Part shown: piece after piece, positions 2,724-21,859 of the stretch | Numbering within the stretch: position 1 is the first letter of the stretch | Layout: every line of letters starts with the position of its first letter | From: a virus | Virus record (IMG/VR): IMGVR_UViG_3300008107_001066 | Span: 1-23,220 of that record | Strand: one strand, 5' to 3' | Length of the DNA stretch: 23,220 nucleotides | Notes under the pieces: model-generated | The model's database searches: none | Told to the model about the DNA's origin: nothing | The model's input: the letters and a program-made list of their open reading frames with translations, nothing else | Position numbers and translations under genes: made by a program

Positions 2724-4132
2724 AAATTGAGAACATTATCTTTGGAAATCTGATTCATAATGAAGAGTATGCACGTAAGGTAATTCCGTTTCTCAAGTCT
2801 GAGTATTTCACTGATAATGTTGATCGTACTGTTTATGAACTGATTGAAGAGTACGTTGGCAAATATAGTAAGTTTCCTACGAAGGAGGCTCTTACTATTG
2901 ATCTCAATAACAAGAGTGGGCTCAAGGACGAAGAGTTTAAGGCCGCCGAGGCTACTATCAGTGGTCTGACCAAGAGCGAAGATCGTGAGATCGATTGGTT
3001 GATCGATACCACCGAGAAGTTTTGTAAGGACAAAGCTCTTTACAATGCCCTCATGGAGTCGATCAGGCTTGTTGATGATAACAAGAGGAAGGATGGCATC
3101 TCGGTTGGTGCCATCCCTCAGCTTCTGTCTGACGCGTTGGCTGTCTCGTTCGACTCGAGCATCGGCCACGACTTCCTTGACGACTCGGATGCTCGTTATG
3201 AGTTCTATCATCGTACCGAGGTGAAGATTCCGTTTGACCTGGATTTCTTCAACAAGATTACGAATGGCGGTTTGCCACGCAAGACCCTGAACATTGCGCT
3301 TGCCGGCACTGGTGTGGGTAAGTCTCTGTTCATGTGTCATTGTGCTGCACAGAATCTCATGTCTGGCTTCAACGTCCTATACATCACTATGGAAATGTCT
3401 GAGGAGAAGATTGCAGAGCGTATCGATACTAACTTGCTTGGTATGTCGACTGCTGATCTTCGTGAGCTTCCAAAGACAACCTATGATACTCTCATGGCCC
3501 GTGTGAAGAAGCGCGCTAAGGGCAAGTTGATTGTAAAGGAATACCCGACCGCGTGTGCTGGTTCGGCTAACTTCCGCCACCTGATCAACGAACTTAAGAT
3601 CAAAAAGAACTTTGTACCTGACATCATCTATATCGACTACCTGAACATCTGTATGTCCAGTCGTATTCGTGCCGGGTCGAATGTCAACTCCTATACGATG
3701 ATTAAGGCGATTGCCGAAGAACTTCGTGGGCTGGCAGTCGAGTGCAACGTTCCGATCGTATCGGCTACTCAGACAACTCGTACCGGTTATTCGTCATCTG
3801 ACGTTGGCCTTGAGGATACCTCTGAGTCGTTTGGTCTACCGGCCACAGCCGACTTTATGTTTGCCTTGATCTCGAGCGAGGAACTACAGCAACTCGGTCA
3901 GATTATGGTCAAGCAGTTGAAGAATCGTTATGGAGATCCTGCTCATCATAAACGGTTCGTCATCGGTGTTGACTACTCGAAGATGAAGTTGTACAACACA
4001 GAGGAGTCTGCACAGGATGATATTGTTGATGATACGCCAGTCTTTGATACGTCAAGTTCTGGTAGTAGAATGAATGAAGAGTCTAAGCCGGTAAACAAGT
4101 TCAATCGTAATAAATTTCAAGGATTCAAGTGA
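2720..4132 (+). CDS. 41: DnaB-type replicative DNA helicase (T4 gp41 family)
   Basis: Hexameric 5'-3' fork helicase, 470 residues, close to T4 gp41 (475). The N-terminal helical domain (about 1-150) begins with a typical DnaB-like segment (IIFGNLIHNEEYARKVIPF). The RecA-like ATPase domain follows: Walker A GTGVGKS at 196-202, Walker B PDIIYIDYLN near 298-307, then a TSESFGLPATADF segment matching the DnaB motif 4 region. The C-terminal tail is polar and low in complexity, a likely contact site for primase or loader. The start overlaps uvsX by ATGA and the stop overlaps the next gene by one base. No primase (gp61) is visible in the window. Confidence 0.96.
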   Translation: MKIENIIFGNLIHNEEYARKVIPFLKSEYFTDNVDRTVYELIEEYVGKYSKFPTKEALTIDLNNKSGLKDEEFKAAEATISGLTKSEDREIDWLIDTTEKFCKDKALYNALMESIRLVDDNKRKDGISVGAIPQLLSDALAVSFDSSIGHDFLDDSDARYEFYHRTEVKIPFDLDFFNKITNGGLPRKTLNIALAGTGVGKSLFMCHCAAQNLMSGFNVLYITMEMSEEKIAERIDTNLLGMSTADLRELPKTTYDTLMARVKKRAKGKLIVKEYPTACAGSANFRHLINELKIKKNFVPDIIYIDYLNICMSSRIRAGSNVNSYTMIKAIAEELRGLAVECNVPIVSATQTTRTGYSSSDVGLEDTSESFGLPATADFMFALISSEELQQLGQIMVKQLKNRYGDPAHHKRFVIGVDYSKMKLYNTEESAQDDIVDDTPVFDTSSSGSRMNEESKPVNKFNRNKFQGFK

Positions 4133-4479
4133 TGGGAATTAACACACACTACTACACTGTGTATGGTGTAAAGATCGATGAGTTCTCAGAAGAGTTCTCA
4201 GAAGCTTGGGATGAGGTTTATGATGAGACAAAGGACAACAAGGATATGGCTCTCATCCTAGATGGCATGTCTGGTTCTTATATGATCTTTGGTAAGATCC
4301 TTTTTGACTCAGGAGACCTTCGCTGGGGCGATTATGAAGATACTCACTCAGACATTGATTTAACCATGCTCGGCGAATATAAAGATAAGTGTGTGGAGCA
4401 GTTCATGAACTACTTCCCGTCGTTTGGTCATTATATGGATCACAAATGGAAGCTGATGACATTTGTTCATTACAGTTAA
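4132..4479 (+). CDS. Conserved hypothetical protein downstream of helicase
   Basis: A 115-residue acidic protein starting at an ATG that shares one base with the helicase stop (TGATG); a GTG codon directly before it is the only alternative. It is rich in Asp, Glu, Tyr and Trp (FDSGDLRWGDYEDTHSDIDL) and has no signal peptide or membrane segment. I do not recognise a domain. Tight coupling to the helicase gene says it is co-expressed with the replication proteins but does not show its role. Confidence 0.7.
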   Translation: MGINTHYYTVYGVKIDEFSEEFSEAWDEVYDETKDNKDMALILDGMSGSYMIFGKILFDSGDLRWGDYEDTHSDIDLTMLGEYKDKCVEQFMNYFPSFGHYMDHKWKLMTFVHYS

Positions 4480-4498
4480 AGTTAAAGGTAAAAATTAA

Positions 4499-4597
4499 AT
4501 GATTGATATCATACGAACATTATTAGCTATTGGGCTTGGTATACTTTCTATGATAGTCTTTCAACTTTTTCTCGATGTAAAGAATAGGAAAAAATGA
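4499..4597 (+). CDS. Tiny single-span membrane protein
   Basis: A 32-residue reading frame: an N-terminal MIDIIR, a hydrophobic segment of about 19 residues (TLLAIGLGILSMIVFQLFL) and a charged tail DVKNRKK. This is the typical make-up of a small phage membrane peptide. AAAGG lies about ten bases upstream of the ATG, and the stop overlaps the next ATG (ATGA), which favours real translation. Function unknown; such peptides often act in membrane remodelling or exclusion, but nothing here shows that. Confidence 0.5.
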   Translation: MIDIIRTLLAIGLGILSMIVFQLFLDVKNRKK

Positions 4598-4842
4598 TGG
4601 TAAACTATAAAGTACAAATGACTGGTGATTGGGCACCCACTCCCTCTGTTACTAACCCTGGAACAGTGTCTGGATATGTACATATGACTTATGAAGTTGT
4701 AGAAACTGGAACACGCCAGATTATGAAGAGTGATATGACTAAAGAAGAAGCAAAGACTCTTTGCCGCCACTTGAATTTTGGTGGTGGCTTTGATGGATGG
4801 ACTCCTTCATTTTTTCTACAAAAATGTGAAAAAAGTTACTAA
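4594..4842 (+). CDS. Hypothetical protein, 82 residues
   Basis: It starts at an ATG overlapping the stop of the tiny membrane protein (a second ATG follows directly at 4597). The sequence looks soluble: beta-rich in the first half (YKVQMTGDW, VSGYVHMTYEVVETG), then a short helix with KEEAKTLCRHLN and a Gly/Trp-rich end. No family recognised. It is the last gene of the run that starts with uvsX; a late promoter box and a structured non-coding stretch follow. Confidence 0.6.
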   Translation: MMVNYKVQMTGDWAPTPSVTNPGTVSGYVHMTYEVVETGTRQIMKSDMTKEEAKTLCRHLNFGGGFDGWTPSFFLQKCEKSY

Positions 4843-4858
4843 GAAGCAGACGAACTTG

Positions 4859-4866
4859 TATAAATA
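4859..4866 (+). promoter_or_regulatory. T4-type late promoter box TATAAATA
   Basis: An exact match to the T4 late promoter -10 box, which T4 reads with the phage sigma gp55. It is not in a gene, and its expected transcript would begin near 4872, just before the folded region 4882-4980 and the terminator at 4983-5011. Confidence 0.55.
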
Positions 4867-4881
4867 CTAGTACACTATGTG

Positions 4882-4980
4882 GTGCGTGGATTTGCGGTTT
4901 CATCCGTGAAAGAGGCAAGTGTCTTAATTGACGACTGGAATAAGCAGGATTACAGGTGGGGTTCCTCCTGCTACACGCAT
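4882..4980 (+). ncRNA. Candidate small structured RNA (tRNA-like shape, not a tRNA)
   Basis: No convincing gene occupies 4843-5065. Bases 4882-4888 (GTGCGTG) pair with 4974-4980 (CACGCAT), seven pairs with one G-T, as in an acceptor stem. Inside are three possible hairpins: GCGG/CCGT (4894-4907), AGTGTC/GACGACT with one bulge (4918-4936), and GCAGGA/TCCTGC (4944-4971). The stretch is 99 bases long, has no T-loop consensus and no CCA end, so a normal tRNA is excluded. It sits between a late promoter box and a rho-independent terminator, which would release an RNA of about 140 bases. The fold was made by eye. Confidence 0.35.
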
Positions 4981-4982
4981 TT

Positions 4983-5011
4983 GGGGCGGCTTTCGGGCCG
5001 TCCCTTTTTTT
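4983..5011 (+). terminator. Rho-independent terminator
   Basis: GGGGCGG (4983-4989) pairs with CCGTCCC (4998-5004), seven pairs with one G-T, around an eight-base loop, followed directly by seven T (5005-5011). It ends transcription from the region before the promoter at 5013. Confidence 0.8.
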
Positions 5012-5012
5012 A

Positions 5013-5041
5013 TGTACATTATTTCGAAAAAGGTGTAGGTT
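5013..5041 (+). promoter_or_regulatory. Promoter of the recurrent TGTACA class
   Basis: TGTACA 5013-5018, 17-base spacer, TAGGTT 5036-5041 within TGTAGGTT. It begins two bases after the terminator T-run and precedes the gene at 5066, which has its own separate GAGGAG ribosome site. Here the TAGG element therefore cannot be explained as a ribosome binding site. Confidence 0.7.
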
Positions 5042-5065
5042 GGTTTTCTATTGAGGAGAAAACAC

Positions 5066-5293
5066 ATGTACACCATCCAATATTTCGATAACCTCGGCCA
5101 AAACAACCACTCGCCCGAATTCCCCGATATCCAAACCATGGCCGATTACATTCTCCAAACCCCTACTCGTAACCACGGTCCTATCTTCTACAACAACCAT
5201 ATCGTCGGCTACGGAATCGACGATGTCATCCGCAACGGAAAAATCCGCCGCTCCTTCACTAACTGGATGTCTCGATATCTCTCCAAACTCTAA
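5066..5293 (+). CDS. Hypothetical protein, 75 residues
   Basis: Soluble small protein rich in Asn, His, Tyr and Ile; no domain recognised. The ATG at 5066 was chosen because GAGGAG at 5053-5058 stands seven bases upstream; the TTG at 5051 lies in front of that site. Codon choice is C-ending (AAC, TAC, CTC), unlike the T-rich codons of the neighbours, hinting at a different origin. It is a single-gene unit with its own promoter and is followed by T-rich sequence that may terminate weakly. Confidence 0.65.
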   Translation: MYTIQYFDNLGQNNHSPEFPDIQTMADYILQTPTRNHGPIFYNNHIVGYGIDDVIRNGKIRRSFTNWMSRYLSKL

Positions 5294-5970: not shown

Positions 5971-5981
5971 AGGACTTGATT

Positions 5982-7190
5982 ATGAACTACGAATTTCCAT
6001 ATATCACCAACATCTCTGATGTGCTGCCTGCTATCGAAGGCCGCGACGAGTTCGTGGTTGCCGAGAAGGAAGGCTACACCGTCATCAACTACAACGTGAT
6101 GATGGCTGATACGTTTCCTGATGTGCTTGCGTCTGATGATCTACGTGCAAACCACGACCATTATGAAGTAGAAAACCTTCACGCTCGCCTTCGTCGTGAG
6201 TGCCGCGGTATCATCTTCGACACTGAGACTGGTGAGATCCTTCGTCGTCCTTTCCACAAGTTCTTCAACGTGAATGAGCGTGAAGAGACTCAGGACCATG
6301 TTGTTGATCTGTCGCGTCCACATGCTATCCTCGAAAAGCTCGATGGCTCGATGATTGCGCCATTCGTTGTGATCGATCAGATGATCTGGGGTACGAAGAT
6401 GGGCGCTACTGATGTGGCAAAGCCTGTTGAAAAGTTCGTTAAGAACAATCCCCAATACGAAGCATTGGCGAACAATGCTATCTTGTTAGGTCTTACTCCG
6501 ATCTTTGAATGGTGTTCACGCAAGCAGCGCATTGTTTTGGATTACAAGGAAGATACTCTTATCTTGACTGCAATGCGAAACATGAAGACTGGTGAATATA
6601 TGGATTATTTCTATATTTCTTCATTTGCTGAACTTGCGGGTATTCCAGTTGTTCGTACCTTCGAACCACAGACTGATATGAAGGCTTTCGTCGAGTACGT
6701 TCGTGATCTGGAAGACCTCGAAGGTTTCGTAGTTCGTTTTTATGATGGGCACATGCTTAAGCTGAAGTGCCATTGGTACCTGCAGATTCACAGGGCGAAG
6801 GAAGCTATCCTACAGGATCGCAACATTGTCGAACTGATTCTGGATGAAGCACTGGATGACATTAAGGCTCATCTACCTGCTGAGGATCGTTTTGAGCTTG
6901 GTCGTTTTGAGCACTTGTTCAATATCGAAGTGTATGGTCAGGCTCAACTGATTAGCAATATGCTCGAGCATATCCGTGAAGAGAATGTTGATCGTAAGAC
7001 CTTTGCTCTCGAAATCGCACCTGCGTTCAATCAGTACACTCGTGCTACGATTTTTAAGTGCTGGGATGAGACTGACGATCACAAGATTGTCGAAGCAGTT
7101 AAGAATGTTATTCGTAACAACTTGACCAAGACTGTAAAGTACGAAGCGATTCGTGATGCTTGGTTTCCTGGAGTAACTTACAATGACTAA
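5982..7190 (+). CDS. rnlA: RNA ligase 1 (T4 Rnl1 family)
   Basis: ATP-dependent RNA ligase that seals 5'-phosphate to 3'-hydroxyl RNA ends; 402 residues (T4 Rnl1 374). Motif I is EKLDGSMI with the nucleotidylated Lys at residue 119. In front of it stands the Rnl1 signature RECRGIIFD...RPFHKFFNVNE (73-99). Further on are LEGFVVRF (motif IV) and MLKLKCHWY (motif V), then an alpha-helical C-terminal domain as in Rnl1. The ATG at 5982 has AGGA seven bases upstream; a TTG two codons earlier is less likely. In T4 this enzyme, together with polynucleotide kinase/phosphatase, repairs tRNA cut by the host anticodon nuclease PrrC. The kinase two genes downstream supports the same role here. Expression is likely influenced by the folded leader at 5889-5970. 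Confidence 0.95.
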   Translation: MNYEFPYITNISDVLPAIEGRDEFVVAEKEGYTVINYNVMMADTFPDVLASDDLRANHDHYEVENLHARLRRECRGIIFDTETGEILRRPFHKFFNVNEREETQDHVVDLSRPHAILEKLDGSMIAPFVVIDQMIWGTKMGATDVAKPVEKFVKNNPQYEALANNAILLGLTPIFEWCSRKQRIVLDYKEDTLILTAMRNMKTGEYMDYFYISSFAELAGIPVVRTFEPQTDMKAFVEYVRDLEDLEGFVVRFYDGHMLKLKCHWYLQIHRAKEAILQDRNIVELILDEALDDIKAHLPAEDRFELGRFEHLFNIEVYGQAQLISNMLEHIREENVDRKTFALEIAPAFNQYTRATIFKCWDETDDHKIVEAVKNVIRNNLTKTVKYEAIRDAWFPGVTYND

Positions 7191-7341
7191 ATGGTTCCGC
7201 AGGCATTACTATTATGTTTGTGTACAAACCGCTTTGTTTGGTTGGAGATGGATTTGTGGGAATCGTAGTCAAAAACCAAACATGACAAAATATCGTGCTT
7301 TCATGAAGCAATGGCACAATAAGTCGTCTCTTGGAGTATAA
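7183..7341 (+). CDS. Small basic aromatic protein between ligase and kinase
   Basis: A 52-residue frame whose ATG overlaps the end of the RNA ligase gene by eight bases and whose stop is one base from the kinase start. It is strongly basic and rich in Trp, Tyr and Arg (KWFRRHYYYVCV, FGWRWICG). The tight fit between two repair genes suggests it is a translated member of the operon, perhaps an RNA-binding partner; that is inference. A nine-base inverted repeat (7235-7243 with 7274-7282) lies inside it. Confidence 0.55.
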   Translation: MTKWFRRHYYYVCVQTALFGWRWICGNRSQKPNMTKYRAFMKQWHNKSSLGV

Positions 7342-7342
7342 T

Positions 7343-7816
7343 ATGCCTAAGTGTACAATTCTCGTTGGTGTTCCTGGTTCAGGTAAGTCCACGTGGCTTA
7401 TCGAAAACCGGCCTAAGGGTGCATGGATCGTCTCTACTGATAACATCATCAATGGTTTGGCCGATGACTACGGCTTTACCTATGATCAGATCTTTAAGGA
7501 GACGATCCGCTTTGCAGACATGGCTATGGTAGCTCGTATGCTGATTGCAGCTCAGAACGGATATGATCTTTATGTTGATCGTACTAATATGTCGGCAAAG
7601 TCGCGCAAGCAGTTCATTGATAAGCTCAAGAAGTATGGTTACGAGTTTGAGTGTGTAGTGTTCCCTACACCTGAACCTGAGGAATTAGAACGGCGACTGT
7701 CTGAACGCTCAGAACGTTTGGGTAAAACTATTCCACAGGATGCCATTGACCGTATGATTGCTTCTTACGAAGAACCAACTGAAACTGAAGGGTTTTCCAA
7801 GGTTACTTTTTTGTAA
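7343..7816 (+). CDS. Polynucleotide 5'-kinase, kinase-only relative of T4 Pnkp
   Basis: P-loop kinase of 157 residues that resembles only the N-terminal half of T4 polynucleotide kinase/phosphatase (PseT, 301 residues). Walker A GVPGSGKSTW is at 9-18; STDN follows at the place of the catalytic Asp; VDRTNMSAKSRKQF matches the DTNLNPERR region of T4 kinase; the lid Arg residues are in ERRLSERSERLGK. The HAD phosphatase domain is missing, so 3'-end healing would need a separate protein, possibly the one at 16286. The ATG at 7343 has GGAG six bases upstream. The stop codon lies inside a perfect palindrome shared with the convergent minus-strand gene, and the two genes overlap by 14 bases. Confidence 0.88.
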   Translation: MPKCTILVGVPGSGKSTWLIENRPKGAWIVSTDNIINGLADDYGFTYDQIFKETIRFADMAMVARMLIAAQNGYDLYVDRTNMSAKSRKQFIDKLKKYGYEFECVVFPTPEPEELERRLSERSERLGKTIPQDAIDRMIASYEEPTETEGFSKVTFL

Positions 7817-13526: not shown

Positions 13527-13540
13527 GAATGGAGTTTGAT

Positions 13541-14074
13541 ATGAAAAATATTTTGGATAACGCTGAGGTCTCTGGTAACGCTGAGGTCTCTGGTAACGCT
13601 TTGGTCTCTGGTAACGCTAGGGTCTCTGGTGACGCTTTGGTCTCTGGTAACGCTAGGGTCTCTGGTAACGCTTGGGTCTCTGGTGACGCTTTGGTCTCTG
13701 GTAACGCTAGGGTCTCTGGTAACGCTTGGGTCTATGGTGACGCTTTGGTCTCTGGTAACGCTAGGGTCTCTGGTAACGCTTGGGTCTATGGTGACGCTGA
13801 GGTCTCTGGTGACGCTTTGGTCTCTGGTAACGCTTGGGTCTCTGGTAACGCTTGGGTCTCTGGTAACGCTTGGGTCTCTGGTAACGCTGACATTCAATCG
13901 AATGATGATTGGTTTTCTTTCATCTATAATGGTAACACTCTCACTGGATACCGTAGTCGTAATGAAGCCGGTTACGAGCTGAATGTTGATGGTAAAGATA
14001 TTGCAATTGAAGACCTCAAAGACGGTTTTGATGTTGTCGTTCGCAATCTAATTAAGAAGTTTACACCCTTTTAA
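13541..14074 (+). CDS. Left-handed beta-helix protein with hexapeptide repeats
   Basis: A 177-residue protein. Residues 7-114 are 18 copies of a six-residue unit (N/D)A(E/L/R/W)V(S/Y)G, followed by a degenerate NADIQS. Such hexads with small residue and Val at fixed places build a left-handed beta-helix, three hexads per turn. The C-terminal 55 residues (WFSFIYNGNTLTGYRSRNEAGYE...) form a separate domain that I have seen behind such repeats in phage and prophage proteins of unknown role. No signal peptide or enzyme motif. The ATG at 13541 has GGAG six bases upstream; an ATG at 13529 would add four residues. After the TAA the same frame continues for 28 sense codons as a coiled coil, so the protein may be a truncated form. 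Possible uses: adhesin-like or scaffold protein. Confidence 0.82.
   Translation: MKNILDNAEVSGNAEVSGNALVSGNARVSGDALVSGNARVSGNAWVSGDALVSGNARVSGNAWVYGDALVSGNARVSGNAWVYGDAEVSGDALVSGNAWVSGNAWVSGNAWVSGNADIQSNDDWFSFIYNGNTLTGYRSRNEAGYELNVDGKDIAIEDLKDGFDVVVRNLIKKFTPF
13559..13882 (+). repeat. 18-base tandem repeat, 18 copies, with 54-base higher order
   Basis: Unit AACGCTNNGGTCTCTGGT repeated 18 times without a gap. Variation is nearly confined to three places: AAC or GAC in codon 1, GAG/TTG/AGG/TGG in codon 3, and TCT or TAT in codon 5. From 13631 a larger unit of three (D..L, N..R, N..W; 54 bases) occurs three times in a row, matching one turn of the predicted helix. Confidence 0.95.
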
Positions 14075-15501: not shown

Positions 15502-16251
15502 ATGGCAGCCCAACAAGGATTTCAATACGAAATCAATGCATCAAATTTATTAAAAAAATATGGGATTGTTCCTAAAGACTTTAGGCCTGCTGGAGCAGGT
15601 CATGACCAACCAGATTTGATGATTATGAAAGGCAATCAAAAAGCTGGTTGTGAACTTAAGATATCTGCAGCTTCTGCTGGGTCTCTAGTAATTAAATACG
15701 ATTCAAAAGATAAAATTAATCCGTGGAAATTTGGAGACATCAAATCTACTGAAGATGAAAAACTCTTTATTAAAGAATTAGCAGAAGAAGTCGGCATATT
15801 TGATATTATTAAAGAAAACTGGAAAGACAAACCGGCAAAACGCGACAAAGATGATGAATGGAAAGCTTTTTTTGGTAATATGTCAAATAGAGAAATGTAT
15901 GAGCGTGATAAAGTTCTCTTTAAAGATATTAAAGGCTCTATTCCAGCATCAAAAATTGAAGAGTATTATATAAAGAAAAAAACATATTATGTAAATGTTG
16001 GAACCCACGGGTTCTATTTAATGGGATCTAAGAACCCCTTAAAGTTAAAAGGCATTCCACGGTTTGGAACCGCTGCAAATGCTACATACAGAGCGCGCGT
16101 CCAATATAAAGGTGGTGGCAATTATCAATTCACTTTTGAGATGCAGTTTAGTATTCCAACAAATTCTAAATCTCCATTTAATATCGCTCCGGTTGATGGG
16201 AAAACAGTCAATATTATCGAAAAAAAATTGAACCTGGCATGTTTTTTATAG
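15502..16251 (+). CDS. PD-(D/E)XK nuclease-like phage protein
   Basis: A 249-residue protein. The N-terminus GFQYEINASNLLKKYG is followed by PAGAGHDQPDLMIMKGNQ and GCELKIS, giving the spaced PD...ExK pattern (Asp about 38, Glu and Lys about 51-53) of restriction-type nucleases; GFQYE at the start supplies the Glu often seen on the first helix. The rest is Lys-rich, with a beta-rich C-terminal half (TYRARVQYKGGGNYQFTFEM). I have seen relatives in marine T4-like phages, some annotated as structural or unknown. The gene is AT-richer than its neighbours, flanked by a terminator and its own late-type box, and looks like a separate insert. Nuclease activity is inferred from motifs only. A junction-cutting or exclusion role is possible. 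Confidence 0.7.
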   Translation: MAAQQGFQYEINASNLLKKYGIVPKDFRPAGAGHDQPDLMIMKGNQKAGCELKISAASAGSLVIKYDSKDKINPWKFGDIKSTEDEKLFIKELAEEVGIFDIIKENWKDKPAKRDKDDEWKAFFGNMSNREMYERDKVLFKDIKGSIPASKIEEYYIKKKTYYVNVGTHGFYLMGSKNPLKLKGIPRFGTAANATYRARVQYKGGGNYQFTFEMQFSIPTNSKSPFNIAPVDGKTVNIIEKKLNLACFL

Positions 16252-16285: not shown

Positions 16286-16891
16286 ATGATCAAGAAAAGG
16301 TTTAGAGAGTTTGTTGGTTCTGGTACGCTCACGATATTCGATATCGATGAGACACTCTTCCATACGAAGGCAAAGGTTGCTGTCGTAAAGGATGGCAAGG
16401 TTGTTCGAATGTTGGATAACCAGGAGTTTAACACCTACAAGCGTAAGGAAGGCGAGACCTACGACTTCGGAGAGTTTGCGAGCGCAGAGGTATTTCGCAA
16501 GACCTCGACTCCAATCTCTCGTATGGTTGCAAAGGCGAAAGCGATCTTTGCCAACTCGAAGAAGAATCCTCACAGCCGGGTAATCATCTGCACTGCACGG
16601 GCTGACTTTGATAACAAGGATCTCTTCCTTCAGACGTTCCGTGATCATGGTCTTCCGATTGATCAGATTCACGTTGAGCGCGCTGGTAACTTGAAGATCG
16701 ACTCTTCGGCAGAAGCTAAGAAGATCATCTTCCGCAAGTATATAAATACAAAGAACTACGTTAAGCTGAGATTGTTTGATGATGCTCCTAGCAATCTTCA
16801 TGCATTTCTTTCGCTGCAAAAAGAATATCCAAACATTAAGTTTGAAGCATATTTTGTAAACCCTGATGGATCGATAAAGACGGTAAAATGA
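16286..16891 (+). CDS. HAD-family phosphatase
   Basis: A 201-residue HAD hydrolase. Motif I is FDIDETLFHT with the two Asp (about residues 19-21), motif II VIICTARADFD (Thr about 96), the motif III Lys lies in the EAKKIIF region, and motif IV is LFDDAPSN. The short N-terminus MIKKRFREFVGSG resembles the capsid-targeting-like starts of later genes but lacks the Glu. The phosphatase half of T4 Pnkp is also a HAD enzyme, and the phage kinase at 7343 lacks that half, so this protein may supply 3'-phosphatase activity; this is inference. A late promoter box lies inside the gene at 16741. The stop overlaps the next gene (ATGA). Acid-phosphatase-like action on nucleotides is the main alternative. 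Confidence 0.85.
   Translation: MIKKRFREFVGSGTLTIFDIDETLFHTKAKVAVVKDGKVVRMLDNQEFNTYKRKEGETYDFGEFASAEVFRKTSTPISRMVAKAKAIFANSKKNPHSRVIICTARADFDNKDLFLQTFRDHGLPIDQIHVERAGNLKIDSSAEAKKIIFRKYINTKNYVKLRLFDDAPSNLHAFLSLQKEYPNIKFEAYFVNPDGSIKTVK
16741..16748 (+). promoter_or_regulatory. T4-type late promoter box inside the HAD gene
   Basis: Exact TATAAATA 140 bases ahead of the ligase-like gene at 16888. It could express that gene and the nucleotidylyltransferase late, independent of the promoter at 16252. Being inside a coding region it could also be chance. Confidence 0.35.
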
Positions 16892-18057
16892 CAGCATTTA
16901 AAAATTTCTTGACCGAAGAAGTAAGTGAAGAAAAGCTCAAGCATCTTGAGCATGCAGAAGATCATGTGATTAATGCTGGCGCCGAAGGGTTCTCACACGC
17001 TTATCATAATCTCAAGGATGTGCATGATAAACTAACTGGTAAAGAGAATGCCACGAAGGTAACCATGAAGTATGACGGTTCGCCTTCTGTTGTGTTTGGT
17101 CGTCATCCTGAAACTGGTAAGTTCTTTGTTGCATCCAAGTCTGCGTTCAACAAGAATCCAAAGATCAACTACACGCATGAGGACATTGAACGCAATCATG
17201 GTCATGCTCCTGGTCTTGTAGAGAAACTGAAAGCTGCCTTGGATCATCTGCCGAAGGTAACTCCCCGTAAGGGTGTGTTCCAAGGTGATATCATGCACAC
17301 ACAAAATGATGTGCACGAATCGGGCAATAAGATTCACTTTACACCAAATACCATTACGTACTCTGCTGATAAGAACTCGCATCATGGCAAAGCAGCACTT
17401 CGTTCAAAGATCGGTGTTGCTGTTCATACCAAGTATAACGGTAAGAACCTCGAAGACATGAAGGCCGAGTATGCACCAAACCTTGATGAGTTTGGACTGC
17501 ACAAGGATGTGCATCTTATCTCTACAGAACATGACATGTCTGGCATTGATTATAAGCCACAACACCAGGCTAAGTTTGTCAAGCACATGGCAGCTGCTGC
17601 TAAGTTGCATGCAAAGACCGGTCCTGAAACTCATGCGGCCATCGAGAGCCACCGTATTCCTCTCAAGACATATATCAACCATACGGTTCGTACCGGTACT
17701 AAGCCGAATGTAAATGAGTTTATGGCGCATCTTGCTAAGTCGCATCAGAAGAAGATCGACTCTGTAAAGACTGCTGCCTCGAAGGCATCAAAGACTGCGG
17801 CAATGGAGCAAGATATTGCTCATGTCCAACGCAATCGTGGTCACTTCGAACGCATTTTGCAGATGCACAACCATCTTCAGAAGGCAAAGGATGTGTTATC
17901 TAATACACTCTCGAGTCGTGCTGAGTTTGATCATAGTATCAGTGGAAAGAAATCTAAGCCTGAAGGATTTGTGGTGGTAAGACATAATCGTCCTACTAAG
18001 ATTGTTGATCGTGCTGAGTTCTCGGCTGCTAACTTCAACAAGGACAAATCGCTGTGA
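16888..18057 (+). CDS. Nucleotidyl-ligase-like protein with KxDG motif, possibly head-packaged
   Basis: A 389-residue protein carrying the signature series of DNA/RNA ligases and capping enzymes: motif I TMKYDGSPSVVFG with candidate lysine K61, motif III-like VFQGDIMHT, motif IV KPEGFVVV and motif V-like PTKIVDR. A His-rich helical segment lies between motifs III and IV. Relatives in T4-like marine phages are usually listed as a domain of unknown function (I believe DUF6267). The N-terminus MTAFKNFLTEE closely resembles the T4 capsid targeting sequence MKTYQEFIAEA, with a possible gp21-type cut after LTE. It overlaps the HAD gene (ATGA) and the next gene (GTGA). It probably forms a covalent nucleotidyl-lysine; whether it joins RNA, DNA or another acceptor is open. 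Confidence 0.75.
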   Translation: MTAFKNFLTEEVSEEKLKHLEHAEDHVINAGAEGFSHAYHNLKDVHDKLTGKENATKVTMKYDGSPSVVFGRHPETGKFFVASKSAFNKNPKINYTHEDIERNHGHAPGLVEKLKAALDHLPKVTPRKGVFQGDIMHTQNDVHESGNKIHFTPNTITYSADKNSHHGKAALRSKIGVAVHTKYNGKNLEDMKAEYAPNLDEFGLHKDVHLISTEHDMSGIDYKPQHQAKFVKHMAAAAKLHAKTGPETHAAIESHRIPLKTYINHTVRTGTKPNVNEFMAHLAKSHQKKIDSVKTAASKASKTAAMEQDIAHVQRNRGHFERILQMHNHLQKAKDVLSNTLSSRAEFDHSISGKKSKPEGFVVVRHNRPTKIVDRAEFSAANFNKDKSL

Positions 18058-18665
18058 AGGCAATCCATATCACTCAAGGAAGATTCAATCCTGTGCATGC
18101 TGGCCACGAAATGGTCGTAAAGCATGTGATGGATGCCGCTAAGAAGGAAGGTGCAGATCATAAGATCTTGACAACCGGTTCTCATGATGCCAAGAAGAAT
18201 CCTCTGACTCCAGAACAGAAGGTCAAGCATCTGTCTCGTGCCGTGAAGGGCGCGAAGGTAGAGGCTATGGGTAAAGATCATCCTACGTTGCTTCATCAGA
18301 TGTCTAAGCTGCATAAGGCTGGTTACACACACGTAACTATGCATGTCGGCTCAGATCGTGTCCATGAGTTTCATAACTTGCTCCACAAGTATAATGGAAC
18401 TGAAGGGAGGCATGGACACTATAACTTCAAGAGCATCAAGGTCAAGTCTGTCGGCGGCGAGCGTTCAGACACAGGTGAAGGAATTGCTGCTGCTTCTGGT
18501 ACGGCAATGCGCAAGCACGCTTCAGCCGGAGACAAGGAGTCGTTTCATAAGATGGCTCCGGCCGGGATGAGTAAAGCGCACAAGGATGAACTCTATCATG
18601 ACGTTCGTAAGGGCATGCCCATGCCCTTACGAGTCCTTTATTGCGAGATTCAAGAACTGGATTAA
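18054..18665 (+). CDS. HxGH-superfamily nucleotidylyltransferase
   Basis: A 203-residue enzyme starting at GTG (GTGA overlap with the gene before). GRFNPVHAGHE near the N-terminus is the GRFxPxHxGH motif of cytidylyl-, pantetheine- and NMN adenylyltransferases; MHVGSDRVHEF and SGTAMRKHASAGD (the SxTxxR-type motif) complete the active site. NMN adenylyltransferase, making NAD, is one likely reaction; transfer to another phosphorylated partner is also possible. The gene is translationally linked to the ligase-like and HAD genes, so the three products probably serve one pathway. A strong hairpin (18606-18631) lies in the last codons. The C-terminal sequence after RKGMPMPL may be atypical, since the hairpin encodes it. 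Confidence 0.82.
   Translation: MKAIHITQGRFNPVHAGHEMVVKHVMDAAKKEGADHKILTTGSHDAKKNPLTPEQKVKHLSRAVKGAKVEAMGKDHPTLLHQMSKLHKAGYTHVTMHVGSDRVHEFHNLLHKYNGTEGRHGHYNFKSIKVKSVGGERSDTGEGIAAASGTAMRKHASAGDKESFHKMAPAGMSKAHKDELYHDVRKGMPMPLRVLYCEIQELD
18606..18631 (+). repeat. 11-base perfect inverted repeat in the 3' end of the nucleotidylyltransferase gene
   Basis: CGTAAGGGCAT (18606-18616), loop GCCC, ATGCCCTTACG (18621-18631). The stem is GC-rich and would be stable in RNA. The following CTTTATT is only a poor T-run, so it may slow or partly end transcription or protect the 3' end before the late genes. Confidence 0.6.
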
Positions 18666-20058: not shown

Positions 20059-21576
20059 ATGGAAGATAAGAAGAAACCGGTACCAGAAAAGAATACTAAG
20101 AAGCCTACGGGCAAGTCTGCAACTGGTAAACCACTAGATGGCGTCGACGTTAATCCTCAGCTAGACGACAAGCGCCGTACAAACGAGGACTTTGCCGTCC
20201 TAGCCGCATCCCTTCAGGAGCGTAAAGCCTTGACGCTTGCACAGCGTCAGCAAAGAGGTCGCCAGCTGAAGCGCATTCAACCAAAGATTCAGAGAGCAAA
20301 AGAGATCTCGCAAGCTCGTCTTGCCGGTCCTCAGAAGCTACAAAGACGTGCAGAAGCCAAGGCACGTGCACTCTTGAAATCTAGATTCTCGGCCCGCAAG
20401 GATGTTCCTTACGCCGAACTGACAACATCTGAAAAGATTCAGGTAGACACTGCTGTTGCCAAAAAGACCAAACTCATCAAGAGACTCGCAGCAAGACTTC
20501 TACCAAAACTAAGAAAAGCAGAGTTCGAAAGACTCAAGTCTTATCACAGTGGAGAGCCAATGAAGAGCCTCCATACCACGATTGCTGCTGAAGAATTTTC
20601 TGGTCTGTTCTCTGATCTAAATGACAAGTCAACACTCGAGCTTGTCGATATCATTGAAAATGCGATTACTCGATTTGAAAAAGAAAGTAATCCGCTAGGT
20701 ATCACTCTACGTAGAATGCTGAATGCCACAATTGGCACCGATCAGATCACAGAAACACTTATCAAAAAAGCTGAAAAAACTGGCATCCCGTTCTCGACTC
20801 TCAAGGAGGTGTACGAGCGCGGCGCTTCGTTGTATCAAGAAGACGCACGTCAAACACGAGATCAGTTTGCATTCAATCGAGTCAATAGCTATATCGCTAA
20901 AGGTAGAGCATGGACTCTTGATGCAGATCTTCGTGAAGAGAGAATTGTCAACGAAGAACTTGACAACGCGTTCAAGCAACTTCTTGAACAAACTAAAAGC
21001 AAAGAGATTGTAGATCGTAAACCTGCGGAATCGAATGTAAAAAAGCGCCATCAAGAACTTCAAAAGAAAATTATTGATGAAGGCGAGATGAAGCCATATG
21101 TAAAGCCGCACTATGGATCAAGTGATCCAAAGAAGCAGACGGCATGGGTTGCTTCGAATAAGTGGGGCAAGAAGAAGTATTTTGGAATGGACTTCAAAAA
21201 GTCTGCTGAGAAGCATGCTAAGATAAACGAAGACTCTCCATCTGAAAGAGAGATTGGAACTGATTCTCTTGTCAAGAAGTACAAGAAAGAAACACCTGGC
21301 CAAGAGAAAGCCGATCTCAATGAAACATTCAACATGGCTTGGACTGCTGGTATCGGCGTGACTCTCTCGGCCGAAGCATGCGGAATCAAGATGAAGCCTG
21401 CTTTCGAACTTCATCCAGATGTTGTTGATGCAATGGAAGAAGTTCGCACTGCTGACGTTAAAGGTGTAATCGTTCGTACCGCCGATGGTAAGACCGTTGT
21501 GCGCAAGCAAAAAAGAAACAAAAAGATCATCGGATCCGGAAATGTAAATGATGGGAAGCCAGATGATACGCTTTAA
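20059..21576 (+). CDS. Conserved highly basic phage protein, probably virion- or head-assembly-related
   Basis: A 505-residue Lys/Arg-rich protein. After a disordered, Pro/Lys-rich N-terminus comes a long basic helical region (LAQRQQRGRQLKRIQPKIQR, later KRLAARLLPKLRKAE), then a segment with DQFAFNRVNSYIAKG, and a C-terminal part TLSAEACGIKMKPAFELHPD. The RVNSY-type block occurs in conserved proteins of marine and rhizobial T4-like phages with unknown function. The ATG at 20059 has AAGGGAAA upstream; an ATG at 20002 would add 19 residues but sits next to the late promoter. Being basic, late and next to head-type genes, it may bind packaged DNA or act in assembly; this is inference. Confidence 0.7.
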   Translation: MEDKKKPVPEKNTKKPTGKSATGKPLDGVDVNPQLDDKRRTNEDFAVLAASLQERKALTLAQRQQRGRQLKRIQPKIQRAKEISQARLAGPQKLQRRAEAKARALLKSRFSARKDVPYAELTTSEKIQVDTAVAKKTKLIKRLAARLLPKLRKAEFERLKSYHSGEPMKSLHTTIAAEEFSGLFSDLNDKSTLELVDIIENAITRFEKESNPLGITLRRMLNATIGTDQITETLIKKAEKTGIPFSTLKEVYERGASLYQEDARQTRDQFAFNRVNSYIAKGRAWTLDADLREERIVNEELDNAFKQLLEQTKSKEIVDRKPAESNVKKRHQELQKKIIDEGEMKPYVKPHYGSSDPKKQTAWVASNKWGKKKYFGMDFKKSAEKHAKINEDSPSEREIGTDSLVKKYKKETPGQEKADLNETFNMAWTAGIGVTLSAEACGIKMKPAFELHPDVVDAMEEVRTADVKGVIVRTADGKTVVRKQKRNKKIIGSGNVNDGKPDDTL

Positions 21577-21859
21577 GCAATTTGTTTCAGAAGCTCGAGG
21601 TGAAGATTCTAAGGGGCATTTCATTGCAACCGAAAAGGGTGCTGGAATGACTGAGAAGGGCGTCAAGGCCTTCCGTGCAAAGAATCCTGGTTCAAAGTTG
21701 CAAACCGCTGTGACAGGTAAAGTAAAACCTGGTTCAAAGGATGCCAAGAGACGCAAGTCTTTCTGTGCTCGTATGAGCGGTATGCCAGGACCAATGAAGG
21801 ATGAAAAGGGACGTCCTACGCGGAAAGCAATGTCTCTACGTAGATGGAGATGTAGATGA
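21563..21859 (+). CDS. Small basic phage protein with capsid-targeting-like N-terminus
   Basis: A 98-residue very basic protein. The N-terminus MIRFKQFVSEA matches the pattern of the T4 capsid targeting sequence MKTYQEFIAEA, with a possible protease cut after VSE. The C-terminal half AKRRKSFCARMSG...RPTRKAMSLRRWRC carries Cys at both ends of an Arg-rich block; I recognise this as a conserved phage domain (I believe DUF6321) of unknown function. Start choice: the ATG at 21563 gives the targeting-like start; ATG codons at 21548 and 21551 would add four or five residues. It overlaps the preceding gene by 14 bases and the next by ATGA. Likely a DNA-binding internal head protein. Confidence 0.75.
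   Translation: MIRFKQFVSEARGEDSKGHFIATEKGAGMTEKGVKAFRAKNPGSKLQTAVTGKVKPGSKDAKRRKSFCARMSGMPGPMKDEKGRPTRKAMSLRRWRCR

What the first reader, a model, noticed from the sequence alone, without database searches (positions are those of the whole stretch)
16286..18665. Overlapping HAD phosphatase, ligase-like and nucleotidylyltransferase genes form one unit
Three genes overlap by four bases each and combine a phosphatase, a KxDG covalent nucleotidyltransferase and a HxGH nucleotidylyltransferase. Such a set could heal and seal nucleic acid ends or rebuild a nucleotide cofactor such as NAD that host defences destroy. It is separate from the Rnl1/kinase pair at 6-7.8 kb, so the phage would carry two end-processing systems. 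The ligase-like protein is usually listed only as unknown.
Basis: partly seen in the sequence, partly recalled or inferred. Interest (0 to 1): 0.75.

Follow-up and report, generated by a model that had tools for sequence, protein, structure and literature searches.

The report
Head-targeted ligase-like protein and nucleotidyltransferase pair
A T4-like phage encodes an unstudied ligase-like enzyme and a partner nucleotidyltransferase side by side; the ligase-like enzyme carries the short address tag that T4 uses to load proteins into its head, so it is probably injected with the phage DNA, but what it acts on is unknown.

Summary
The three genes exist as described: HAD 16286-16891, a 389-aa protein 16888-18057 and an HxGH nucleotidyltransferase 18054-18665, each overlapping the next by 4 bases. 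The 389-aa protein is DUF6267 (4.6e-101), which no paper in the library searched mentions. It looks like a diverged ligase-superfamily enzyme. KxDG (K61) and motif IV EG (E359-G360) are invariant in 71 homologs, and the AF2 model (pLDDT 92) finds mostly DNA/RNA ligases first, but only at E>=0.094. The real partner is the nucleotidyltransferase: present in 51/56 loci with enough flank, fused in 9, with an NMNAT-like fold. The HAD is an accessory (34/100 loci).

This tag is on 96/112 homologs against 36/529 neighbouring ORFs. The rule was checked against published virion proteomes. In S-SM1, S-SCSM1, S-SZBM1 and S-CREM2 the nucleotidyltransferase was found in virions and carries the tag. The untagged DUF6267 of S-CREM2 and S-SZBM1 was not listed.

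Best reading: a ligase-like/adenylyltransferase pair loaded into the head and injected at infection, most likely for nucleic-acid end repair; substrate unproven. A complete NAD salvage pathway is not supported (no NadV in 16 records).

The parts
16286..16891 (+). HAD-superfamily phosphatase-like protein, 201 aa; N-terminus MIKKRFREFVGSG keeps the F..F pattern of the head tag but lacks the cleavage glutamate
   Evidence: phrog_415 polynucleotide kinase 1.5e-9; DxDET, T103, D165-D166 invariant in 7 homologs; accessory
16888..18057 (+). DUF6267 ligase-like protein, 389 aa, putative nucleotidyl-lysine K61
   Evidence: PF19782 4.6e-101; invariant K61/D63/G64/K84/Q132/D134/E359/G360/K371/R375; AF2 pLDDT 92.2; top folds mostly ligases, E>=0.094
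16888..16917 (+). capsid-targeting-like peptide MTAFKNFLTE (residues 1-10), predicted cleavage after E10 by a gp21-type protease
   Evidence: T4 IPII/IPIII MKTYQEFIAE; 96/112 vs 36/529 vs 1.2% shuffled; determinant residues 4, 7, 8, 10
17068..17079 (+). motif I KYDG (K61-G64)
   Evidence: invariant in 71/71
17557..17910 (+). helical insert, residues about 224-341, between motifs IIIa and IV; shortened in some cyanophage homologs (S-CREM2 gp87, 295 aa)
17962..18012 (+). motifs IV and V: E359-G360 and K371..R375 (EGFVVVRHNRPTKIVDR)
   Evidence: weak register match to T4 Rnl1-type motif IV/V
18054..18665 (+). HxGH nucleotidyltransferase, 203 aa, NMNAT/NadD-like fold; C-terminal tail frameshifted in this species
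   Evidence: NMNAT PRK01153 1e-5; pLDDT 89.9; 71 PDB matches E<=1e-3, NadD first
18607..18634 (+). 12-bp inverted repeat CGTAAGGGCATG..CATGCCCTTACG that shifts the frame of the NTase tail
   Evidence: (z = -2.8)
21548..21859 (+). DUF6321 small basic protein with the same head tag (MIRFKQFVSE); the only other forward gene of the window with the tag
   Evidence: S-CREM2 DUF6321 locus lies in ORF137, listed in its virion proteome

Best explanation
A two-enzyme unit of T4-like phages. DUF6267 is a diverged member of the covalent nucleotidyltransferase (ligase) superfamily that would form a nucleotidyl-lysine at K61. It works with an adjacent, sometimes fused, NMNAT-like adenylyltransferase, and in some phages with a HAD phosphatase or a P-loop kinase. 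In the window's clade DUF6267 carries a T4-type capsid-targeting peptide: it would be recruited into the prohead core, cut after E10 by the gp21-type protease, packaged with the DNA and injected. In the new host it would act before phage gene expression, most likely healing and sealing nucleic-acid ends (tRNA or DNA broken by host defences), with the NMNAT-like partner supplying or recycling a nucleotide cofactor. Supported here: gene linkage and fusions, conserved catalytic residues, the tag and its fit to published virion proteomes. Inferred: packaging and injection of this protein, covalent chemistry, nucleic-acid substrate. My step-wise estimates: ligase-superfamily enzyme 0.85; functional pair with the NTase 0.9; head packaging of the window's DUF6267 0.75; end repair as the main role 0.4.
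For: Tag: MTAFKNFLTE vs IPIII MKTYQEFIAE; 96/112 distinct homologs, 80/118 in the exact IPIII register; on both sides of deep splits of the family tree. In the 70-kb contig of the same species only 2 of 106 ORFs have it; AF2 leaves residues 1-12 below pLDDT 50. Gp21-type protease in 6 of 16 records, including one whose DUF6267 is 78% identical. Virion data: NTases of S-SM1, S-SCSM1, S-SZBM1 and S-CREM2, reported in virions, all begin with the tag; the untagged DUF6267 of S-SZBM1 (adjacent gene) and S-CREM2 are absent from the lists. Ligase: motifs 71/71, mostly ligases among top folds. Pair: 51/56 loci, 9 fusions. End-healing context: HAD hits phrog_415 polynucleotide kinase; NTase-kinase fusion; tagged kinases.
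Against: No significant fold or profile match to any ligase: Foldseek E>=0.094, hhalign 0.034 and 0.52. Motif III is QGD and motif V K..R. HAD is missing from most loci. Cyanophage DUF6267s lack the tag, and DUF6267 itself has not been seen in a virion in any source I could read. The window's NTase has no N-terminal tag. Virion detections of NTases rest on 2-3 peptides in the two papers whose tables I read, and authors of two of the papers warn of possible carry-over. Homologs are related, so the enrichment p-value overstates independence.
Confidence: 0.5

Rival explanations
1. NAD+ maintenance: the NMNAT-like enzyme is the active core, turning NMN (host-derived or released by other reactions) into NAD+ early in infection; DUF6267 is an auxiliary nucleotidyl enzyme or NAD user.
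For: NTase fold nearest to NadD/NMNAT; best NCBIfam hit is NMN adenylyltransferase; several cyanophage virion papers propose it; phage NAD salvage is known.
Against: No NadV (NAPRTase) in any of 16 records, including 7 complete isolate genomes; PPAT and FAD synthetase score almost as well, so the substrate is unproven; the fused or linked kinases are AAA_33/zeta-like, closer to polynucleotide kinase than to the NadR kinase family.
Confidence: 0.3
2. The pair is an ordinary intracellular end-repair or metabolic unit; the N-terminal peptide is an amphipathic helix with another role, and virion detection of the NTases is carry-over.
For: Authors of the virion papers raise carry-over; DUF6267 not listed in two cyanophage virions.
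Against: The tag matches IPIII at all four tested determinant positions, is rare in the same genomes, and all four virion-detected NTases whose sequence was checked have it.
Confidence: 0.2
3. DUF6267 is a catalytically diverged ligase fold used as a DNA/RNA-end binding head protein, like T4 gp2 end protector, with no covalent chemistry.
For: Motif III/V departures; long helical insert.
Against: Catalytic K61, E359 and K371 invariant in 71 sequences down to 34% identity.
Confidence: 0.1

Closest known systems
T4 internal proteins IPI/IPII/IPIII and Alt (capsid-targeting sequence, gp21 cleavage)
   Same: 10-residue N-terminal tag with hydrophobic residues at 4 and 7, aliphatic 8, Glu 10; gp21-type protease in relatives
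   Different: Cargo is a predicted ligase-like enzyme with an NTase partner, unrelated to IPs; T4 itself has no DUF6267, NTase or HAD homolog
NMNAT-like cytidylyltransferases of cyanophage virions (T4-GC190; S-SM1, S-SZBM1, S-SCSM1, S-CREM2)
   Same: Homologous to the window's third gene; next to DUF6267 (T4-GC71) in several cyanophages
   Different: There the NTase carries the tag and DUF6267 does not; in the window's clade DUF6267 carries it
T4 Rnl1/Pnkp and Rnl2 end-repair enzymes
   Same: KxDG ... EGxV ... K motif order; HAD and P-loop kinase companions in some loci
   Different: No significant profile match; helical insert; head tag; the window carries its own separate Rnl1 and kinase at 5976-7816
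KVP40-type phage NAD+ salvage (NadV + NadM/NadR)
   Same: HIGH-type adenylyltransferase
   Different: No NadV in 16 records; companion is ligase-like

Membership tests
Covalent nucleotidyltransferase (ligase/capping) superfamily | Motif I KxDG | tested here: met
   K61-x-D63-G64 in 71/71
Covalent nucleotidyltransferase (ligase/capping) superfamily | Motif IV EGxV | tested here: met
   E359-G360 in 71/71
Covalent nucleotidyltransferase (ligase/capping) superfamily | Motifs III and V (xGEx, KxK) | tested here: inconclusive
   QGD with invariant D134; K371-x-V-[DN]-R375
Covalent nucleotidyltransferase (ligase/capping) superfamily | Ligase-type fold or significant profile match | tested here: inconclusive
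   Most top PDB folds are DNA/RNA ligases but E>=0.094; hhalign to Rnl1 0.034 and Rnl2 0.52
Covalent nucleotidyltransferase (ligase/capping) superfamily | Enzyme-lysyl-NMP intermediate | not testable with these tools
   needs protein
T4 capsid-targeted internal head proteins | N-terminal CTS with determinants at 4, 7, 8, 10 | tested here: met
   MTAFKNFLTE; 96/112 homologs
T4 capsid-targeted internal head proteins | gp21-type (S77) prohead protease in the same phage | tested here: inconclusive
   Found in 6/16 records of relatives, one with DUF6267 78% identical; not found in the 70-kb contig of the window's species, a fragment; the window record itself was not searched
T4 capsid-targeted internal head proteins | Presence in purified virions, cleaved after E10 | not testable with these tools
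   Only the tagged NTase partner has published virion evidence, in four cyanophages
HIGH adenylyltransferases (NMNAT/NadD type) | HxGH, a terminal S-x-x-x-R motif and Rossmann fold | tested here: met
   HAGH, SGTAMR; 71 PDB matches E<=1e-3, NadD first
HIGH adenylyltransferases (NMNAT/NadD type) | NMN or NaMN as substrate | not testable with these tools
   PPAT and FAD synthetase are near-equal fold matches
Pnkp-type 3' phosphatase (HAD) | DxDxT and DD motifs with Pnkp-like sequence | tested here: inconclusive
   Motifs present; phrog_415 1.5e-9; Pfam HAD_SAK_1 below cut-off
Phage NAD+ salvage (NadV + NMNAT) | NadV/NAPRTase in the genome | tested here: not met
   0 of 16 records

The most novel reading that the evidence does not exclude
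DUF6267 is an NAD+-consuming nucleic-acid ligase that releases NMN, and its fused or adjacent NMNAT partner regenerates NAD+ from that NMN: a self-recharging ligase delivered from the phage head that can seal ends even while host defences destroy NAD+.
Probability: 0.08. Interest if true: 0.9.

Novelty: new variant of a known kind. Interest (0 to 1): 0.62.

Why it matters
DUF6267 was found in 471 phage records, mostly T4-like marine cyanophages, yet no paper in the library searched names it. If tagged enzymes are injected from the head, the short tag gives a readable rule for which T4-like phage enzymes act in the first minutes of infection. It also explains why NMNAT-like proteins keep turning up in cyanophage virion proteomes, an observation their authors left open, and it makes an injected end-repair or cofactor role directly testable by mass spectrometry and adenylylation assay.

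Tried and rejected
(1) PDB sequence search with the window's DUF6267 and NTase and with profiles of DUF6267 and the HAD gave nothing useful. (2) hhalign of DUF6267 with Rnl1 and Rnl2 profiles: not significant. (3) PADLOC: no defence family for the three proteins. (4) Complete NAD salvage: no NadV. (5) A first kinase count was discarded: the NTase profile contained a kinase fusion and cross-hit kinases. (6) Piggy-back packaging of untagged DUF6267 with a tagged NTase: not supported in S-CREM2 and S-SZBM1. (7) HAD as a core member: rejected. (8) S-CREM2 genome-wide test of the tag against virion detection is only suggestive: 3/50 detected vs 1/160 undetected, p=0.043. (9) Melnitz was scored untagged on the tree although it begins MINFSKYITE in the alignment, probably because the script read a non-ATG start codon literally.

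Full report
Observation. The three ORFs and both 4-base overlaps are present exactly as described. The window is a 23,220-base virus record from a T4-like phage; the same species appears in other contigs of up to 70 kb.

What the proteins are. The 389-aa protein is Pfam DUF6267 (4.6e-101) and phrog_455. The phrog_455 profile also contains a C-terminal cytidyltransferase, i.e. a natural fusion of the second and third genes. A search of open-access papers finds no mention of DUF6267. Across 71 diverse homologs K61, D63, G64, K84, Q132, D134, E359, G360, K371 and R375 are invariant, in the motif order of covalent nucleotidyltransferases. AlphaFold2 with these 71 sequences gives pLDDT 92.2 and pTM 0.88. 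Foldseek against the PDB ranks DNA ligase III, the Rnl of the Pnkp1/Rnl/Hen1 complex, DNA ligase IV, LigA and T4 Rnl2 first, but only at E>=0.094. A likely reason is a helical insert (about residues 224-341) between motifs IIIa and IV that is shortened in some cyanophage homologs. In the viral structure library the first named non-family matches are RNA ligases. Profile comparisons with Rnl1 and Rnl2 are not significant, although both local alignments fall on motif IV. I conclude 'ligase-superfamily enzyme, probable' (0.85), not 'RNA ligase, shown'.

The third protein has an NMNAT-like fold: HAGH and SGTAMR motifs, 71 PDB matches at E<=1e-3 with NadD enzymes first and PPAT and FAD synthetase close behind. 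The first protein is a HAD phosphatase with weak Pnkp affinity.

Which genes belong together. Of 56 distinct DUF6267 loci with at least 3.5 kb downstream, 51 have the NTase. Nine further distinct loci have it fused, for example L131, 551 aa, and a 591-aa S-PM2 protein matches DUF6267 in the viral fold library under the name cytidyltransferase. In L060 the NTase is fused to an AAA_33/zeta-type P-loop kinase; similar tagged kinases lie nearby in L162 and L166. The HAD is present in 34 of 100 loci with enough upstream sequence and in none of the seven complete isolate genomes with the pair. The Rnl1 of the window is found in only 1 of 16 DUF6267-bearing records, so the 'two systems' are a feature of this phage, not of the family.

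The new feature: a head tag. DUF6267 of the window starts MTAFKNFLTE. T4 internal proteins IPII and IPIII start MKTYQEFIAE. For IPIII the first ten residues suffice for packaging; positions 4 and 7 govern targeting, 8 and 10 govern cleavage (PMC9026906). The window protein fits all four. By one fixed pattern the tag is on 96 of 112 distinct DUF6267 proteins, on 36 of 529 other ORFs of the same loci and in 1.2% of shuffled N-termini; 80 of 118 are in the exact IPIII register. Relatedness inflates the p-value, but the tag occurs on both sides of deep, well-supported splits. In the 70-kb contig of the window's species only 2 of 106 ORFs have it: DUF6267 and the small basic DUF6321 protein. A gp21-type protease is encoded in 6 of 16 relatives' records. 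NTases (e.g. L071, L101, L123), HADs (L076, L095, L119) and kinases (L162, L166) of other loci carry the same tag.

Independent check on published virion proteomes. Cytidylyltransferase/NMNAT-like proteins were detected in virions of S-SM1 (PMC3037559), S-SZBM1 (PMC9146016), S-SCSM1 (PMC9602691) and S-CREM2 (PMC10665884). I read their N-termini: MKKFSAFLNE, MRFRQFIIE, MKSFLQFLKE, MKNFSSFLTE, all four tagged. The DUF6267 proteins of S-CREM2 (gp87) and S-SZBM1 (gene 141, directly adjacent to the NTase) have no tag and are not in the virion lists. For S-SM1 and S-SCSM1 I could not read the full lists. In S-CREM2 as a whole 3 of 50 detected and 1 of 160 undetected ORFs have the strict tag (p=0.043); the tagged detected ones include a SAM hydrolase. 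The prediction is therefore that in the window's clade DUF6267 itself is in the head. Only one paper in the library holds both 'capsid targeting' and 'cyanophage', a T4 review, so the rule appears unreported within that library.

How it may work. Tagged DUF6267 is recruited to the prohead core, cut after E10, packaged and injected. It would then act at once, with the NMNAT-like partner. The company of Pnkp-like HAD and P-loop kinases in some loci favours nucleic-acid end healing and sealing (0.4); NAD maintenance is the main rival (0.3), weakened by the absence of NadV in 16 records. Substrates are not shown by anything here.

Verdict. An orphan family gets a probable enzyme class, a stable partner and a predicted place of action. 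The kind (tagged internal head proteins of T4-like phages) is known; the cargo and its distribution are new.

Noticed in passing
18607-18634: A 12-bp palindrome CGTAAGGGCATG/CATGCCCTTACG replaces the relatives' sequence and frameshifts the NTase tail (ESFIARFKNWIN* to PMPLRVLYCEIQELD*); identical in L001-L003, so not a single-assembly error.
   Followed up: yes
21548-21859: DUF6321 small basic protein with a head tag MIRFKQFVSE; the DUF6321 locus of S-CREM2 falls in ORF137, which is listed in its virion proteome. Candidate DNA-associated internal head protein.
   Followed up: partly
L060:7176-8420; L069:7854-8717; L079:5377-5997; L080:7804-8418: Tag-like peptides (RFKTFFTEAF, FKTFLAED, FKTFLTEE) sit inside or at the C-terminus of NTases, at the joints to a kinase or DUF6321: fusion scars of tagged genes.
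   Followed up: partly
15502-16251 and L010:3748-4743, L076:4976-5962, L107:2695-3936, L098:2033-3061: A variable gene lies just upstream of the HAD/ligase genes; in relatives it often carries the head tag (phrog_4687, phrog_13937 or no family). Possibly exchangeable injected cargo; the window copy (phrog_26930) has no tag.
   Followed up: partly
L177 (S-CREM2 3837-5081, minus strand): The SAM hydrolase found in S-CREM2 virions also begins with the tag (MKDFDSFLEE), consistent with an injected anti-restriction enzyme.
   Followed up: partly
L081:7986-9765 (S-PM2 AJ630128) versus BFVD A0A0M6VVW4: DUF6267 and cytidyltransferase are split differently between S-PM2 records: two ORFs with a broken DUF6267 in AJ630128, one 591-aa fusion in the fold library.
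   Followed up: no
13529-14074: 181-aa protein of near-perfect VSGNA/VSGDA repeats with a long open antisense frame; weak PHROG matches to tail and baseplate proteins.
   Followed up: no
5976-7816: Rnl1-type ligase (phrog_562) and P-loop kinase (Pnkp-like, 7331-7816); this Rnl1 is absent from most other DUF6267 records searched, several of which are fragments.
   Followed up: partly
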